A DNA stretch of 64,000 nucleotides, from the NCBI RefSeq assembly GCF_005222915.1, contig NZ_STFX01000020.1, forward strand, positions 62,001 to 126,000, in the 5' to 3' direction. Positions within the stretch are counted from its first letter, which is position 1; each line of letters starts with the position of its first letter. The notes under the pieces are model-generated. The model was not told the DNA's origin and did no database searches. It saw nothing but the letters and a program-made list of their open reading frames with translations. Shown here piece after piece: positions 6,601 through 54,425 of this stretch. This DNA comes from Rhizobium sp. FKL33. GTDB taxonomy: Bacteria; Pseudomonadota; Alphaproteobacteria; Rhizobiales; Rhizobiaceae. Both the position numbers and the translations under genes were made by a program.

Positions 6601-8493
6601 TCAAGCCGCGCGGCGGACTGACCGGGCCGTCGAGGCGCTCAGGCGGAAGCGCTCCAGCAGTTCATGCAGATGGCGGCTCTGTTCGGAGAGCGACATGCTG
6701 GCGGCGGTGGTCTCCTCGACCATGGCGGCGTTCTGCTGGGTCATCTGGTCCATGTGATTGACCGAGCTGTTGATTTCCTGCAGCGCCGAAGCCTGCTCCT
6801 GGGTCGCCTTGGAAATGGTCTCGATGTGATCATTGACGCGGTTGACCAGGCCCTCGATTTCCAGCAGCGCCTCTCCGGTCGAGCGGACCAGGCCGACGCC
6901 GGTGGAGACTTCCGTCTCCGACTGGTTGATCAGCGACTTGATCTCCTTGGCGGCGTTGGCGGAGCGCTGGGCGAGTTCGCGGACTTCCTGCGCCACGACC
7001 GCGAAACCCTTGCCGGCGTCGCCGGCGCGGGCGGCTTCGACGCCTGCGTTGAGCGCGAGCAGATTGGTCTGGAAGGCGATTTCGTCGATGACGCCGATGA
7101 TCTGGCTGATCTTGCCGGAGGATTCCTCGATGCGGCTCATCGCGGAGACAGCGTCGCGGACGATCGCGCCCGATTTGCCGGCGCTCTGCTTGGTTTCCAC
7201 CATCATCGAGGTCACCTCATGGGCGCGCTGCGAGGTGCTGCGCACGGTGGCGGTGATCTCGTCGAGGGCGGCGGCGGCCTCTTCCAGCGAGGCGGCCTGC
7301 TGTTCGGTGCGGCGGGAGAGATCGTTGGCGGCGGCGCTCAGTTCGCGGGTGTTGTCGTTGATGGTCGAGCCGGAGAGGCGGATGCGTTCGATCGTCGAGG
7401 CGAGCGTTTCCATGGTCGCGTTGACGTTGTTCTGCAGTTCGGCGAAAGCGCCGCGGAATTCGCCCTGCATGGTCTGGGTGAGATCGGCGTCGGCGAGCGC
7501 CCCGATCACGCGGCGCATCGCGCCGACGCCCTTGTCGACCGTGCCGACCAGCTCGTTGACGCTCGAGGCGAAGCGGTTGAGGTCGGGATTGTCGTAATCC
7601 TTGGAAATGCGCAACGAGAAATCGCCGTTGACGGCGGCGGCGACCACGCCGCTGATCGTGTTCTGCAGTTCGGCGCTCTTGGCGTGCATGGCCTGTTCCT
7701 GCGCTTCGAGCTGGCGCATGGCGATGCTGTTCTTCCGGAAGATTTCCATGGCGCGGGCCATTTCGCCGATCTCGTCCTGGCGGGCGGTGCTGTCGACCTC
7801 GCCGGAGAGATCGCCGCCGGCTAGCCGGCTCATCGCGCCGGTCAGCGCCTTGATCGGTCTGGAGATGCCGTTGCGGGCGATGTAGGAGCTGACGCTGCCC
7901 CCGATGATCACGCAGAAGGCCGCGACCCCGATCTGCACCCAGATCGCGAGATCGGCTTCGCTGAGCGCATCGGCGCGGGCGGTCGCCAGGCTTTCGCCCG
8001 AGGATTTGCTGTAGATCTTGACGGCGGCGGTCACCGCCTTCTGCGCGTCGAGCGCCTTGCCGAGCGCGGCTTTCAGCCCCGCAGCGTCGCCGCCGTCCTG
8101 CGCCGTCTTCACCATGGCGCGGATTTGGTCGAAATAGGCGAGGAGCGCTGTCTTCACATCCGCTAGCATCGCTTTTTCGTCAGGGCTCGCCACCTGCTCG
8201 ATCTTCGGCAGCCGCTCCAGCATTTCGCCGGCGCGCTTTTCGGTTTCAGTGGCGAAATCCCCCGCCTTCTCCGGCGCGAGCGCCAGCTGATACGTCATGC
8301 GGCTGATGGCGATAATGTCGACGCGCAGGTCCATGGCTTCACGGGCCATCTCTTCGCGGGTTCCGACCGAGGCCAGCGTGCCGCCGATATCGCGCATGCC
8401 GAGAATGCCGACGCCGGCGATTGCGAGCGACGCCACGGCCATGAAGATCATGACCAGGCCAATTTTCATCTGGATCGGCAGATTCTGCAGCAT
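6601..8493 (-). CDS. Methyl-accepting chemotaxis protein
   Basis: A 630-residue inner-membrane chemoreceptor. TM1 (residues about 11-31) and TM2 (about 185-205) enclose an approximately 150-residue helical periplasmic sensor rich in Ala/Glu (four-helix-bundle type). Two HAMP-like segments follow ([20 protein letters not shown] and a second before residue 340), then the signalling domain with the conserved hairpin [20 protein letters not shown] and flanking Gln/Glu-rich methylation helices. The C-terminus ends SVRRAA and lacks an obvious CheR-docking pentapeptide. It is a stand-alone gene with no che genes nearby. Confidence 0.95.
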
Positions 8494-22501: not shown

Positions 22502-24046
22502 TCAGCAATAGATCTGCCAGCGCGCGCGAATGGCCTGATCGGCGATCGGATCGATCAGACTTGGGGCGGCGTCGCGGAGTATGCGGTTCTTGCGCTCGAT
22601 CGCCTTTTGCACAAGGTCGGGTCGGCCGAGCTCCACCCATTCCTTCGGGCTCGAACGGTTGGCGACGACGGGATAGACATATTCGGTTTGCATCACCTGC
22701 AGCGTCTGTTCATGGCCGAGATAATGACCCGGGCCTTCCAGGCAAACTGATTTCATCGTGTCGATCGACACGGAATCCTCGGTCACGTCGATGCCGCGCA
22801 CGCAGCGCTGCACCTGGCCGAGCATGTCGTCGCCCAGCACCAGCGATTCCAGGCAGAAGCCGAGCAGCGAGGCATGCATGCCGACCGATTCATAGACCAT
22901 GTTGAGACCCGAGAGACCGGCGAGCACATTGAGAATGCCCTGTTCCCAGCCCGCCTGCATGTCCGGAAGCTTGGAATCCGACATGCCGCCGGCCGCGCCG
23001 CCCGGCAGGCCGTAGAAATGGTGCATCTGGGCGCAGCCGGCCGATAGCAGCCCCTGTTCGCCAGAGCCGCCCGACATCGCGCCGGTGCGCAGATCGGACA
23101 CGAAGGGCCAGGTGCCGAAGATGGCGGGATGGCCCGGCGCCATGGCGTTGACATAGACGACGCCCGCCAGGCATTCGGCGACCGCCTGCACGATGGCGGT
23201 TGCGAGCGGCGCGGGCGCGGTGGCGCCGGCTTGGCCCGCCGACAGGAGCAGAATGGGCATGCCCTCGCGGATGCAATGCTCCATGGTCTGGCAGCTTTCG
23301 GTAGCAAATTTCATCGGCGGCACGACGAAGCAGTTGGAATTCGACACGAAGGGACGCGCCCGCCACTGATCCTCGCCGCCGGCGATCATATGCAGCATCT
23401 CAAAGCCGTCGCTCACATGGGAGGGGTCTGAGAAGCTAGTGCCGACATGTTTGCTCGTGCCGGCGCAGCAGGCGTAAAGCGTGTTCATGTCCATCAAGAG
23501 ATTGTCGGTGACATCACGGCAGACCATGGCGCGCTGGAAAAAATGGATATTGTCGAGGTGATGCACGAGCCTGGAGGCGTCGAGCAGATCCTTTGAGGTG
23601 GATTCGCGATATTCGCGCTTTTCGACATCCACGACATGCACGGCGGCGCCGGCGGTGCCGAAATAGGTGCGGGTGCCCGAAAGCTGCATGTCGAATTTCG
23701 GATCGCGGCCGAACAGCGTGATGTCGCGGGCGGCGACCGCCAGCATGTCCTCGACCAGCGCGCGCGGAAAGCGCAGGCGGCCATCATCGCCCAGCACCGC
23801 GCCGGCCCGGGTCATGACCTCCACGCCCGTCTCCGGCGCCTGCGAGAGACCGATCACCTCGAGCGCCTCGAGCGCCGCTTCATGAATGCGTTTGACGCCC
23901 GCGTCGGTGAGCGGTTTGTACTGCCCGCCGGACAGACCGGGTCGGATCGGCCGGAGATTGTCCGCCAGAGGCGCCGCGCGCTGGGCGACGCGGGCGGCGC
24001 GGCCTCCGGCTCTTCGCGATGCGGATACGGTGCAGACATCATCCAT
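22502..24046 (-). CDS. Trimethylamine methyltransferase (MttB) family protein, non-pyrrolysine
   Basis: A 514-residue TIM-barrel corrinoid-type methyltransferase of the MttB superfamily (SGGQYKPLTDAGVKRIHEAALEALEVIGL, FFQRAMVCRDVTDNLLMDMNTLYAC, LPGGAAGGMSDSKLPDMQAGWEQ). The frame has no internal amber codon, so it is of the non-pyrrolysine class, whose known members demethylate glycine betaine, proline betaine or carnitine-like quaternary amines. The ATG at 24046 follows GGGAGG; the longer frame upstream is not supported. It is divergent from a beta-hydroxyacid dehydrogenase. No corrinoid protein or RamA gene is visible, so the methyl acceptor is unclear. Confidence 0.88.
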   Translation of the reverse strand: MDDVCTVSASRRAGGRAARVAQRAAPLADNLRPIRPGLSGGQYKPLTDAGVKRIHEAALEALEVIGLSQAPETGVEVMTRAGAVLGDDGRLRFPRALVEDMLAVAARDITLFGRDPKFDMQLSGTRTYFGTAGAAVHVVDVEKREYRESTSKDLLDASRLVHHLDNIHFFQRAMVCRDVTDNLLMDMNTLYACCAGTSKHVGTSFSDPSHVSDGFEMLHMIAGGEDQWRARPFVSNSNCFVVPPMKFATESCQTMEHCIREGMPILLLSAGQAGATAPAPLATAIVQAVAECLAGVVYVNAMAPGHPAIFGTWPFVSDLRTGAMSGGSGEQGLLSAGCAQMHHFYGLPGGAAGGMSDSKLPDMQAGWEQGILNVLAGLSGLNMVYESVGMHASLLGFCLESLVLGDDMLGQVQRCVRGIDVTEDSVSIDTMKSVCLEGPGHYLGHEQTLQVMQTEYVYPVVANRSSPKEWVELGRPDLVQKAIERKNRILRDAAPSLIDPIADQAIRARWQIYC

Positions 24047-36769: not shown

Positions 36770-36800
36770 AAAAAAACCGGCCGCATAAGCAAGCCGGTTT
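36770..36800 (-). terminator. Riboswitch-controlled intrinsic terminator before metZ
   Basis: On the minus strand AAACCGGC and GCCGGTTT form a perfect 8-base-pair stem that runs straight into a T-run just before the metZ ribosome-binding site. The upstream segment GCCGGGTT (at the 3' edge of the SAM-II motif) can instead pair with AAACCGGC, giving a competing antiterminator. This arrangement supports control by attenuation. Confidence 0.7.
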
Positions 36801-36810
36801 CATCAGAGAA

Positions 36811-36870
36811 CCCGGCCTTTTTAGCTAGTTGTTTAACGTGGCTGCAAGCCGGCCGGCCAAATCACCACGA
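36811..36870 (-). ncRNA. SAM-II riboswitch
   Basis: The minus-strand leader of metZ contains the SAM-II core: CGTGGTGATTTGG, CCGGCCGG, CTTGCAGCCACG, TTAAACAA and GCTAAAAAGG in order. P1 is formed by CGTGG with CCACG, and the downstream GCTAAA segment makes the pseudoknot. SAM-II elements are known ahead of methionine genes in alphaproteobacteria. One unusual base occurs in AACTAGCTAAA, where most members have AGTCGCTAAA. Confidence 0.9.
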
Positions 36871-36979
36871 ATTCCGTGGATTGGCTTAACTCAAACCGCC
36901 TCTGAGGTCAATCACGGGCGATTCGCGCTTGCGTCCGCAAGGTCGGATTTCTATTGTCCCGGCAAAAATAGAGGTTGAG

Positions 36980-38071
36980 ATGGCAGGAATTCTGGCGGAT
37001 CGCGCGATCAGGGCGCTGTGGGACGAGGGACGGCTGAAGGCCGAAAAGCCGCTGGATCACGACCAGATCCAGCCGGCGAGCCTCGACCTGCGTCTCGGCG
37101 CCAAGGCGTTCCGGGTGCGCGCCTCCTTCCTGCCGGGACCGAGCAAGCGTGTGGCCGACAAATTGAGCCGGCTCAGCCTGCATGTCGTCGATCTCAGCGA
37201 CGGCGCAGTGCTCGAAACCGGCTGCGTCTATATCGTGCCGCTGCTGGAGACGATCGATCTGCCGCAGCATCTGTCGGCCTCGACCAATCCAAAGAGCTCG
37301 ACGGGGCGTCTGGATATCTTCACTCGCGTCATCACCGATTACGCCCAGGAATTCGATCAGATCGCGACCGGCTATAGCGGGCCGCTTTACCTCGAAATCT
37401 CGCCGAAGACCTTCCCGATCATTGTTCGGCGGGGGTCGCGCCTGTCGCAGATCCGCTTCCGCGAGGGACAGTCGCTGCTGCGCGAAGACGAGATGTTGTC
37501 TCTGCACCTGGCCGAAACGCTGGTCGCGGCCGAAAGCCCGATCATTTCAGGGTCATCGATCGCTTTGTCCATCGATCTCCAGGGCTCGGGCCCGGACGGT
37601 CTGGTGGGTTATCGCGGCAAGCGCCATTCCGCCGTTATCGATGTGGATGTGAAGGCGGCCCATGACATCTATGATTTCTGGGAGCCGATCTATAGCCGCG
37701 GCCGCAACGAACTGATCCTCGATCCCGATGAATTCTACATTCTCGTGAGCCGTGAAGCGGTGCATGTGCCGCCGCTCTACGCCGCCGAAATGGTGCCGTT
37801 CGATCCGCTGGTGGGTGAATTCCGCGTGCATTACGCCGGCTTCTTCGATCCCGGTTTCGGCCATGTCGAGGCGGGCGGCGCAGGCGCGCGGGCGGTGCTG
37901 GAAGTGCGCAGCCACGACGTGCCGTTCATTCTCGATCACGGCCAGATCATCGGTCGTCTCGTCTATGAGCATATGCGGGAAAAGCCCGAAGCGCTTTACG
38001 GAACAGGGCTCGGCTCGAACTATCAGGCGCAGGGCCTCAAGCTCTCCAAGCATTTCAAGGCGCAGGATTAA
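36980..38071 (+). CDS. dcd: 2'-deoxycytidine 5'-triphosphate deaminase, long alphaproteobacterial form
   Basis: A 363-residue dCTP deaminase/dUTPase-superfamily protein, about twice the length of E. coli Dcd (193). The active-site block is SASTNPKSSTGRLDIFTRVITDY with a further GYSGPLYLEISPKTFPI strand. The second half repeats the trimeric dUTPase-like fold (VPPLYAAEMVPFDPLVGEFRVHYAGFFDPGFG). It supplies dUTP for thymidylate synthesis. The ATG at 36980 follows GAGGTTGAG. It is divergent from the metZ leader. Confidence 0.87.
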   Translation: MAGILADRAIRALWDEGRLKAEKPLDHDQIQPASLDLRLGAKAFRVRASFLPGPSKRVADKLSRLSLHVVDLSDGAVLETGCVYIVPLLETIDLPQHLSASTNPKSSTGRLDIFTRVITDYAQEFDQIATGYSGPLYLEISPKTFPIIVRRGSRLSQIRFREGQSLLREDEMLSLHLAETLVAAESPIISGSSIALSIDLQGSGPDGLVGYRGKRHSAVIDVDVKAAHDIYDFWEPIYSRGRNELILDPDEFYILVSREAVHVPPLYAAEMVPFDPLVGEFRVHYAGFFDPGFGHVEAGGAGARAVLEVRSHDVPFILDHGQIIGRLVYEHMREKPEALYGTGLGSNYQAQGLKLSKHFKAQD

Positions 38072-38120: not shown

Positions 38121-38194
38121 GCGGGTGTAGCTCAATGGTAGAGCAGCAGCTTCCCAAGCTGAATACGAGGGTTCGATTCCCTTCACCCGCTCCA
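38121..38194 (+). tRNA. tRNA-Gly(CCC)
   Basis: The cloverleaf is complete: acceptor GCGGGTG paired with CACCCGC, D-arm GCTC-AATGGTA-GAGC, anticodon loop TTCCCAA giving anticodon CCC, T-arm GAGGG-TTCGATT-CCCTT, discriminator T and an encoded CCA. It reads glycine GGG codons. Confidence 0.95.
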
Positions 38195-38384
38195 GAAACT
38201 CCATGTAAATCAATGTTTTGACGTTGAACTGCTTTTCGGGGCAGCCTTGGTGCGTCGTGTCTGCGCCTGTCCAGAAGATTGGATGCGCAAAGGCCTCACA
38301 AAGTCGTGAACGTCATTTTCTTCGCGCTGCGAAATAATCTCTTGATTTTTGTGCGACGCAGCATTACCTTGATACTTGTCATAC

Positions 38385-38489
38385 GGTTACTCCTCCTCCC
38401 AAACCGCTGACGGCGACAGATAGCGCTCCTCCTCCCAAGCTGTCTGTCATAATCAAGCCCGGCGCACCTCCTCCCGCGCCGGGCTTTTT
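38385..38489 (+). ncRNA. Probable cuckoo-type small RNA with three CCUCCUCCC loops
   Basis: Three exact CCTCCTCCC motifs occur at 38392-38400, 38428-38436 and 38467-38475, each in the loop of its own hairpin. Hairpin 1 is CGGTT/AACCG; hairpin 2 is GACAGATAGC/GCTGTCTGTC; hairpin 3 is the terminator. CCUCCUCCC is an anti-Shine-Dalgarno sequence and marks the cuckoo/CcsR RNA family of alphaproteobacteria, which are stress-induced. The 5' end is not certain. No DUF1127 gene, the usual neighbour, is visible. The rest of the gap (38195-38384) shows no gene. Confidence 0.8.
38455..38489 (+). terminator. Intrinsic terminator of the CCUCCUCCC small RNA
   Basis: AAGCCCGGCGC and GCGCCGGGCTT make an 11-base-pair stem with the loop ACCTCCTCCC, followed by a T-run (five T's counting the stem end). 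The third anti-Shine-Dalgarno motif fills the loop. Confidence 0.92.
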
Positions 38490-38506
38490 ATATTCAGCAA
38501 AGTTCT

Positions 38507-39196
38507 TCAGATGCGGCGCAGCGCCTCGGCGTCGGTGATCTGCACCATGCGGCCGCGGATCGAGACGCCTGAGGTCTTGAGCATCGAGAAGGCGCGCGAC
38601 AGCGCTTCCGGGGCGAGACCGAGCTTGCCGGCGAGCAGGCTCTTCTGGAAGGGCAGGCGGAAGGAGTTGGAATTGCCGGCGCCGCTGTGCTGCAGCATGT
38701 CCAGGAGATAATTGGCGACGCGTTGCGGCGCGGTGTGCAGCCGGTCATTGGCGACATTCTCGCGTGCGTCCTGGAGGTGATGGGCGAGCACCCGGAGCAG
38801 CGCCATGGAGAATTCCGGCTCCTCAGCCATGATCTGGCGGATCTTCGCGACGTCGAACCGCGCCAGCGTCACCGGCTCCGCCGCCTGCGCGTTGAAGGCG
38901 TATTTGCAGCCGAGGAACATCGCGCATTCGCCGAAGGTCTCGCCGGGGCCATACACGCCGATATCGGCTTCTTTCCCGTCGCGGGAGAGTCGGAAGAGCC
39001 TGATATAGCCGGAAAGAACCACATAGAAGTTCTCCGCTTCCGCGCCTTCGCGGAACAGGACATCCTTCGCCTCGCCGCTGAACACCGCAGCGCTTTCCAA
39101 GACCCGACGAGCAAGCGTCGGATTGAGCCCCGACATCAGCGGCGTGGATAGCAGGATCTCGCGGTCGCGGTGATTCATCTTCAGCATCTTGTTCAC
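38507..39196 (-). CDS. Crp/Fnr-family transcriptional regulator
   Basis: A 229-residue regulator. The cyclic-nucleotide-binding-like domain spans FREGAEAENFYVVLSGYIRLFRL to GPGETFGECAMF, then a long dimer helix and a winged HTH (LPFQKSLLAGKLGLAPEALSRAFSMLKTSGVSIRGRMVQITD). There is no N-terminal cysteine cluster, so it is not an oxygen-sensing Fnr; it is closer to the Dnr/NnrR type. I chose the GTG at 39196 because CCGGAGGA lies correctly before it; ATGs at 39187 and 39178 are alternatives. An Fnr-type box lies 71 bases upstream. Confidence 0.85.
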   Translation of the reverse strand: MNKMLKMNHRDREILLSTPLMSGLNPTLARRVLESAAVFSGEAKDVLFREGAEAENFYVVLSGYIRLFRLSRDGKEADIGVYGPGETFGECAMFLGCKYAFNAQAAEPVTLARFDVAKIRQIMAEEPEFSMALLRVLAHHLQDARENVANDRLHTAPQRVANYLLDMLQHSGAGNSNSFRLPFQKSLLAGKLGLAPEALSRAFSMLKTSGVSIRGRMVQITDAEALRRI

Positions 39197-39266
39197 GATT
39201 GTCCTCCGGAGTTGAACCGAAAATCTTTCCCTTTCATCAAGTGTAGCTAAAAGCCGGCACGGGGAA

Positions 39267-39280
39267 TTGATTTCGATCAA
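39267..39280. promoter_or_regulatory. Fnr/FixK-type box
   Basis: TTGAT-TTCG-ATCAA is a perfect match to the Fnr/FixK/Dnr consensus TTGAT-N4-ATCAA. It lies 71 bases upstream of the Crp/Fnr-family gene, suggesting control by an Fnr-type protein or by the gene's own product. Confidence 0.75.
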
Positions 39281-39301
39281 TGCTTGGAGTGCGAACAGCA
39301 A

Positions 39302-54187: not shown

Positions 54188-54269
54188 CGTATCTCAGCTT
54201 TTTCGAGCCGCATCCCTTTTGTTTCCCCAGAAAATCATTATATTGAAGTTGCGATCTGCGCTCCTCGGC

Positions 54270-54425
54270 AGGAAAACTTTTCCTTGGGGCCATACTCGAT
54301 CTTATGGGAGCTGTCCCTGTTTTGGCCTGTGGGCTGGAGCACATGGCGCCCACCTACTTTTGTAGGCGCCCAGGATCGAACTTCCACCGGTCGTCGTGGA
54401 TCGCACTCTTCCCCAAGCTTTCGTC
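54270..54425 (+). ncRNA. ssrS: 6S RNA (SsrS)
   Basis: About 100 bases after zapA, CTTGGGG (54283-54289) and CCCCAAG (54411-54417) form the closing stem of a long, mostly self-complementary hairpin with an open middle (GGAGCTGTCCCTG... and ...CCAGGATCGAACTTCC), the 6S layout that mimics an open promoter and binds sigma-70 RNA polymerase. Location after zapA is the conserved site for ssrS. Exact ends are approximate. The folate gene ygfA, the usual downstream neighbour, is not present. Confidence 0.75.

What the first reader, a model, noticed from the sequence alone, without database searches (positions are those of the whole stretch)
38385..38489. Triple-hairpin small RNA with three CCUCCUCCC anti-Shine-Dalgarno loops
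Three exact CCTCCTCCC motifs each sit in the loop of a separate hairpin, the last being the terminator. This is the pattern of the cuckoo/CcsR RNAs, but with no DUF1127 gene attached and placed directly downstream of tRNA-Gly. It could compete for ribosome-binding sites of many mRNAs.
Basis: partly seen in the sequence, partly recalled or inferred. Interest (0 to 1): 0.65.

Follow-up and report, generated by a model that had tools for sequence, protein, structure and literature searches.

The report
Standalone ar14 (cuckoo-type) small RNA
A small regulatory RNA with three identical loops that can block the ribosome-binding sites of messenger RNAs; it belongs to a known family of plant-associated bacteria, and this copy sits in a slot beside a tRNA gene that two sister species leave empty.

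Summary
Window 38372-38491 (+) folds into three hairpins, each with an unpaired CCUCCUCCC loop, the third being the terminator. It is a full-length Rfam RF02344 (ar14) match, 97.3 bits, threshold 58.8, and its stems covary. ar14 is the published family of NfeR1 of Sinorhizobium meliloti, which has its own promoter; a missing DUF1127 gene is therefore ordinary. It is not a CcsR RNA by the covariance model (17.5 bits, threshold 65.3).

The copy is shared with two close Rhizobium species, with a conserved promoter block behind a divergent spacer, so its own promoter is likely. The genome has five ar14 matches. This one lies between tRNA-Gly(CCC) and crp; in two sister species these genes are adjacent without it. 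In the 13 best of 269 plasmid matches, similarity runs from about the -35 to the terminator, so it looks like a compact mobile copy.

Verdict: new member of a known kind. In passing: ar14 on phage/provirus contigs, 18 of 18 tested, many of them near-identical; paper searches listed nothing describing this.

The parts
38121..38194 (+). tRNA-Gly, anticodon CCC; neighbour, not part of the RNA.
38195..38316 (+). divergent spacer between tRNA and promoter block
   Evidence: 80/130 and 60/123 aligned positions identical to the two orthologues, 62% and 49%
38317..38371 (+). conserved promoter block (left edge set by eye): TTGATT (38342-38347), 17 bases, TACCTT (38365-38370), with TGCGACGCAGCATTA between the hexamers
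   Evidence: 51/55 and 53/55 identical in orthologues; a like signature in 23 of 63 rows examined. The strict sigma-70 scan found no site
38372..38491 (+). ar14 small RNA
   Evidence: RF02344, 97.3 bits, model 1-123 of 123; z = -7.48
38376..38413 (+). hairpin 1, loop motif CCTCCTCCC 38392-38400
   Evidence: weakest helix among other copies: outer part 69.6% and 54.6%, inner part 85.3% and 64.8% of cells paired
38415..38448 (+). hairpin 2, loop motif 38428-38436
   Evidence: 9 of 10 pairs with double changes in 40 copies, 93.5% of cells paired
38455..38491 (+). hairpin 3 = terminator with T5 tail, loop motif 38467-38475
   Evidence: 9 of 11 pairs with double changes in 40 copies, 99.3% of cells paired.
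38507..39301 (-). convergent Crp/Fnr-type regulator gene, the other side of the slot
   Evidence: PF00027 and PF13545; 93% identical in G002 and G003
36929..38071 (+). dCTP deaminase gene upstream of the tRNA, used to trace the locus
   Evidence: PF06559 and PF22569; match in 57 of 61 genomes

Best explanation
It is a standalone ar14 (NfeR1-family, cuckoo-type) trans-acting small RNA. It is transcribed from its own promoter at about 38342-38370 and ends at its third hairpin. Each rigid stem presents an unpaired CCUCCUCCC that pairs with purine-rich Shine-Dalgarno stretches (GGGAGGAGG and shorter) and so blocks translation of several mRNAs; the three loops are redundant. This copy entered the gap between tRNA-Gly(CCC) and crp in the ancestor of three close Rhizobium species, probably as a compact unit of promoter plus RNA related to plasmid-borne copies. 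Shown here: family, structure, covariation, promoter-block conservation, a slot without the RNA in two sisters. Inferred: transcription, pairing in the cell, targets, gain rather than loss, direction of transfer.
For: RF02344 full-length match, 97.3 bits against 58.8. Three hairpins with open loops. Covariation: on 19 copies 24 of 32 pairs change on both sides, on 40 copies 29 of 32; covariation score and cells paired are reached by 0 of 500 shuffles in both; slid controls pair 27-49% of cells against 84-88%. Motif: of 49 ar14 rows of the genus, 22 hold three exact motifs inside the match, 22 two, 2 one and 3 none; all three are intact in the window copy and both orthologues. Promoter block 93% and 96% identical in the orthologues, spacer 62% and 49%. 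Locus kept in G000, G002, G003; tRNA and crp adjacent without the RNA in G004 and G008. In the 13 best of 269 plasmid records similarity begins at 38336-38348, near the -35, and ends at 38485-38491. Mechanism: passages on NfeR1 report three redundant aSD motifs that silence target mRNAs. In this genome GGGAGGAGG-N3-11-ATG occurs 10 times against 1 for the reversed pattern; two of the 10 are ar14 loci read backwards, and five start open frames of 164 aa or more, with duplex energies of -20 to -24 kcal/mol.
Against: No RNA data. In S. meliloti only one of six copies was reliably detected by Northern blot in the conditions tested, so this copy may be silent. No strict sigma-70 promoter was called. 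The published NfeR1 operator motifs TGCA-N6-GCAT and TGC-N11-GCA are absent upstream. The proven NfeR1 target ntrB is not convincing here: its start region offers only GGGAG. CCTCCTCCC is about as frequent in the genome as its reverse, 51 against 44. GGAGGAG-N4-11-ATG being 138 against 18 mostly reflects ordinary Shine-Dalgarno sites, so targets are not resolved; three of the eight remaining nine-base sites start frames of only 15-40 residues. The promoter signature was written after looking at the sequences, and most plasmid rows were chosen because their match reached the promoter. Loop invariance in the 40-row alignment is partly by choice, since rows without three CTCCTCC were dropped.
Confidence: 0.82

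Rival explanations
1. It is a CcsR-type cuckoo RNA, part of a DUF1127-RNA operon that lost its protein gene.
For: Same loop motif; DUF1127 matches lie near two other ar14 loci of this genome.
Against: CcsR1 model 17.5 bits, threshold 65.3; no DUF1127 match on contig C15; the orthologues in two species have none within 3 kb either, by tblastn with two DUF1127 queries; a conserved promoter block lies directly upstream.
Confidence: 0.05
2. The RNA is made by read-through from tRNA-Gly and processed.
For: Same strand, 177 bases downstream, and no terminator was called between them (the same scan also missed the RNA's own terminator).
Against: The spacer diverges while the block before the RNA is conserved. 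In G003 the complete tRNA is about 41 kb away, yet RNA and promoter block are kept.
Confidence: 0.08
3. A relic paralogue: a well-formed but silent duplicate, only its terminator being used, for instance at the end of the convergent crp.
For: Only one of six S. meliloti copies was reliably seen by Northern blot; the locus is limited to three of nine genomes of the genus.
Against: RNA is 113/120 identical to both orthologues and promoter block 51/55 and 53/55, against 62% and 49% in the spacer; all three loops intact in all three species.
Confidence: 0.15

Closest known systems
NfeR1 / ar14 family (Rfam RF02344; Sinorhizobium meliloti SmelC397)
   Same: Length, three hairpins, CCUCCUCCC in each loop, third hairpin as terminator; a likely promoter of its own
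   Different: Promoter: published LsrB and NtrC motifs absent, TGCRNYGCA element instead; no clear ntrB site. The S. meliloti chromosome was not at hand, so locus and sequence were not compared directly
SmelA075 / SmelA099 (S. meliloti; three and four such hairpins)
   Same: Same loop motif and modular hairpins; the pSymA stretch at the printed SmelA075 position aligns with the window copy. The C38 pair in this genome shows four motifs each
   Different: The pSymA copy lacks the promoter signature of the window class
CcsR1-4 of Rhodobacter sphaeroides (RF02791)
   Same: Loop motif (the Rfam title names it); 'cuckoo' concept
   Different: Co-transcribed with ccaF1 (DUF1127) and cut out by RNase E; covariance model not met

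Membership tests
ar14 (RF02344) | covariance model above gathering score | tested here: met
   97.3 against 58.8 bits, positions 1-123 of 123
ar14 (RF02344) | three hairpins, each with CCUCCUCCC unpaired, stems variable | tested here: met
ar14 (RF02344) | terminator as last hairpin | tested here: met
   38455-38491 with T5; the simple scan did not list it
ar14 (RF02344) | discrete transcript of about 123 nt | not testable with these tools
   no RNA data
NfeR1 (as the S. meliloti regulator) | LsrB site TGCA-N6-GCAT and NtrC site TGC-N11-GCA upstream | tested here: not met
   none in 38196-38391
NfeR1 (as the S. meliloti regulator) | 8-nt pairing with the ntrB start region | tested here: not met
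   only GGGAG in 75 bases around the start; sequence reading plus one duplex computation
NfeR1 (as the S. meliloti regulator) | Hfq independence | not testable with these tools
   published for NfeR1 (passage)
CcsR1 (RF02791) | covariance model above gathering score | tested here: not met
   17.5 against 65.3 bits
CcsR1 (RF02791) | co-transcribed with a DUF1127 gene | tested here: not met
   no PF06568 match on C15

The most novel reading that the evidence does not exclude
The window copy belongs to a mobile subclass of ar14 with a shared palindromic operator (TGCRNYGCARCATTA between -35 and -10). It spreads as a unit of about 150 bases (promoter to terminator) among rhizobial plasmids and into chromosomal slots such as this tRNA-Gly/crp gap, while other ar14 RNAs ride in the DNA-metabolism region of phages. 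Mobile elements would then regularly bring their own dose of anti-Shine-Dalgarno RNA and retune translation in the host.
Probability: 0.3. Interest if true: 0.5.

Novelty: new member of a known kind. Interest (0 to 1): 0.27.

Why it matters
As a family member it is ordinary. It adds a likely recent gain: the slot is filled in three close species and empty in two sisters. It also adds a promoter-defined subclass shared with plasmids. If ar14 copies are cargo of plasmids and phages, the multiplicity of cuckoo RNAs would have a simple source, and one could test whether incoming elements change translation of host genes.

Tried and rejected
CcsR membership was rejected by covariance score and by the absent DUF1127. 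tRNA read-through is disfavoured. Conservation of the tRNA-Gly linkage outside close relatives was not found: of 80 named dCTP deaminase loci with up to 4 kb on each side, 1 (L126, Rhizobium sp. G21) shows a cluster of two or more motifs on one strand. L125 belongs to G003, whose RNA lies beyond the stretch fetched. The 80 are the best of 575 relatives found.

The NfeR1-ntrB pairing was looked for and not supported. A common plasmid neighbourhood was looked for. Of 12 plasmid places taken at even steps from a spread list of 60, 5 had no annotation in the stretch; the other 7 showed mixed neighbours, two of them a DUF1127 gene. Cold-shock, virB11 or repABC genes beside plasmid copies were seen in several but not all, so no rule is claimed. 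Two of the 13 best promoter-spanning plasmid hits (H2, H8) were not fetched. In the other plasmid rows listed the match covers the RNA or part of it without the -35. The window copy finds no relative in the named phage collection, nor do two phage-contig copies.

Rows dropped or not given. One search used 49 of the 51 matches that one search counts in the nine genomes; two fell outside its capped list. Before the covariation count rows were dropped: copies under 80 bits, G008_C401 and G008_C449 (fewer than three loops), L217 (left out by hand as near L216), identical stretches such as L236 and L219; L223, L239 and L240 were not given. Of the 40 rows left, A1 holds 19 picked by hand and A2 all 40.

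Full report
Observation. The window holds exactly three CCTCCTCCC, all on the + strand within 84 bases. The stretch 38372-38491 folds into three hairpins (-47.3 kcal/mol, z = -7.48), the motif is unpaired in each loop, and the last hairpin ends in T5.

Identity. It matches Rfam RF02344 (ar14) over the whole model at 97.3 bits, gathering score 58.8. The same search gives CcsR1 only 17.5 bits against 65.3, and ar7 24.1 against 60. The own genome has five ar14 matches, four over the cut-off and one at 58.6 bits just under it. In 61 genomes (own plus 60 relatives) 45 have a match at E <= 0.001 and 37 one over the cut-off; 0 of 14 control genomes do.

Literature. From the abstract and passages of PMC10746234: ar14 is the family of NfeR1, with three hairpins each bearing the identical CCUCCUCCC; the motifs act redundantly; NfeR1 is 123 nt and Hfq-independent; it has its own promoter and silences ntrBC. 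From passages of PMC7143759: six copies in S. meliloti, only one reliably seen by Northern blot in the conditions tested. From passages of PMC3927594: SmelA075 and SmelA099 carry three and four such hairpins, with several copies per genome and fragmented synteny. From passages of PMC10253847: CcsR RNAs are co-transcribed with a DUF1127 protein and cut out by RNase E. The 2015 paper on the cuckoo RNA family (PMC4615179) is not held.

Structure test. I aligned 19 copies, picked by hand as the window's promoter class and near kin (A1), and 40 copies of all classes (A2), and counted the window's own fold on them. A1: 87.6% of cells paired, 24 of 32 pairs with changes on both sides. A2: 83.8% and 29 of 32. 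Covariation score and cells paired were reached by 0 of 500 shuffles in both; further pair types by 0 and 1 of 500. Slid controls paired 27-49%. Hairpins 2 and 3 are firm; hairpin 1 aligns less well between copies. In A2, 8 of 9 bases of the first and third motif are invariant, and every base of the second is at least 90% conserved, but the rows were chosen for having three CTCCTCC cores. Without that choice, 22 of 49 genus rows hold three exact motifs inside the match, 22 two, 2 one and 3 none.

Place and history. In nine genomes of the genus I examined 49 ar14 rows (the window copy and 48 listed hits; one search counts 51 in all) by neighbouring genes. Two loci are kept in 9 of 9. In G004 tRNA-Gly and crp are 12 bases apart and in G008 about 100, with no RNA between. 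In G003 the complete tRNA lies about 41 kb before the RNA, and a 3' part of the tRNA lies about 150 bases before the RNA, as an inserted element would leave it. The others are not resolved. In G005 the tRNA and crp lie on different contigs, and a second tRNA-Gly(CCC) lies near crp. In G007 deaminase and crp lie on different contigs and no tRNA-Gly was called in either stretch. In G001 crp is not beside the tRNA. In G006 the deaminase was not found. None of the stretches fetched around these genes in G001, G005 and G007 shows a motif cluster. So the copy was most likely gained in the three-species lineage, though loss elsewhere is not excluded.

Promoter. Against G002 and G003 the promoter block is 51/55 and 53/55 identical, the RNA 113/120 in both, the tRNA-side spacer 62% and 49%, and the bases after the terminator 33% and 62%; the left edge of the block was set by eye. 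A signature like TGCRNYGCARCATTA is met in 23 of 63 rows examined: 10 of 49 genus rows (in one, G006_C95, the pattern fits an upstream copy) and 13 of 14 plasmid rows (one place counted twice, one row also a genus row). The pattern was written after seeing the sequences, and most plasmid rows were chosen for a match that reaches the promoter. Against that, a strict sigma-70 scan found none, and the published LsrB and NtrC motifs of NfeR1 are absent.

Plasmid kin. 269 of 72,556 plasmid records match the window stretch 38300-38495. In the best 13 the match starts at 38336-38348, near the -35, and ends at 38485-38491; the best is Rhizobium gallicum pRgalR602c with 80.1%. In the rows listed after these the match covers the RNA or part of it. 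In the best 13, then, the similarity covers the transcription unit and little else. The direction of transfer is not shown.

Mechanism. The loops are open and identical, so pairing with start regions is the natural reading and is what was tested for NfeR1 in print. In this genome GGGAGGAGG-N3-11-ATG is found 10 times, the reversed control 1 time. Two of the ten are ar14 loci read backwards; of the other eight, five start open frames: two flavin reductases, an aldehyde dehydrogenase by my own reading, a LacI-type regulator and an ABC transporter ATPase; three start frames of 15-40 residues. Predicted duplex energies of the five are -20 to -24 kcal/mol. These are candidates only. The ntrB start region has only GGGAG.

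Phage observation, outside the question. The pattern of three motifs hits 61 stretches of IMG/VR; a control with the same bases in another order hits 9, one of them shared. 18 of 18 tested stretches hold ar14 over the gathering score; they are not independent, as seven of them carry the same 121 bases and two more share another sequence. I scanned ten proteins from five loci. In L249, L252, L254 and L271 phage DNA helicase, Cas4-type exonuclease or exonuclease families appear; in L258 a primase/helicase-like gene; two of the ten proteins, both from L271, match no family. Stretches of about 1.5 kb on each side of a related helicase in four named rhizobial phages, including 16-3, hold no ar14. 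Paper searches showed nothing that describes it; only titles and abstract beginnings were seen, and one search found no paper.

Conclusion. A standalone ar14 RNA, new only as a member and by its place.

Noticed in passing
L271:5113-5233 and 17 other viral-contig loci: ar14 RNAs on phage/provirus contigs, near phage DNA helicase and exonuclease genes in four of the five loci scanned; several copies are identical. 61 stretches carry the triple motif against 9 for the control pattern. None around the helicase of four named rhizobial phages.
   Followed up: partly
window 38342-38370; L218, L220, L221, L235-L240: A palindromic TGCRNYGCA sits between the -35 and -10 hexamers of the window class and of plasmid copies, in several with a like stretch further upstream; the regulator is unknown.
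   Followed up: partly
L218:2659-2865, L221:2672-2878, L239:4659-4865, L219:3715-3921: Cold-shock protein genes lie within about 600 bases of four plasmid ar14 copies; in three of the four about 120-140 bases upstream on the same strand.
   Followed up: partly
G000:C38:3650-3794 and 7577-7714: Two further ar14 loci of this genome about 4 kb apart, each with four CCTCCTCCC motifs; one has a DUF1127 match 318 bases upstream.
   Followed up: no
L084 and L092: In G004 and G005 an ar14 match starts 36-38 bases after a DUF1127 match, a CcsR-like arrangement.
   Followed up: no
window 22885-22984 (-): Rfam PYLIS_3 (pyrrolysine insertion sequence of mttB) match, 48.8 bits, in a Rhizobium; perhaps an echo of mttB-like coding sequence.
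   Followed up: no
window 36800-36878 (-) and 54250-54406 (+): SAM_alpha riboswitch before a Cys/Met-metabolism PLP enzyme gene, and 6S RNA.
   Followed up: no
G003:C2:116725-158011: About 41 kb between a complete tRNA-Gly and a duplicated 3' part of it, probably an integrated element.
   Followed up: no
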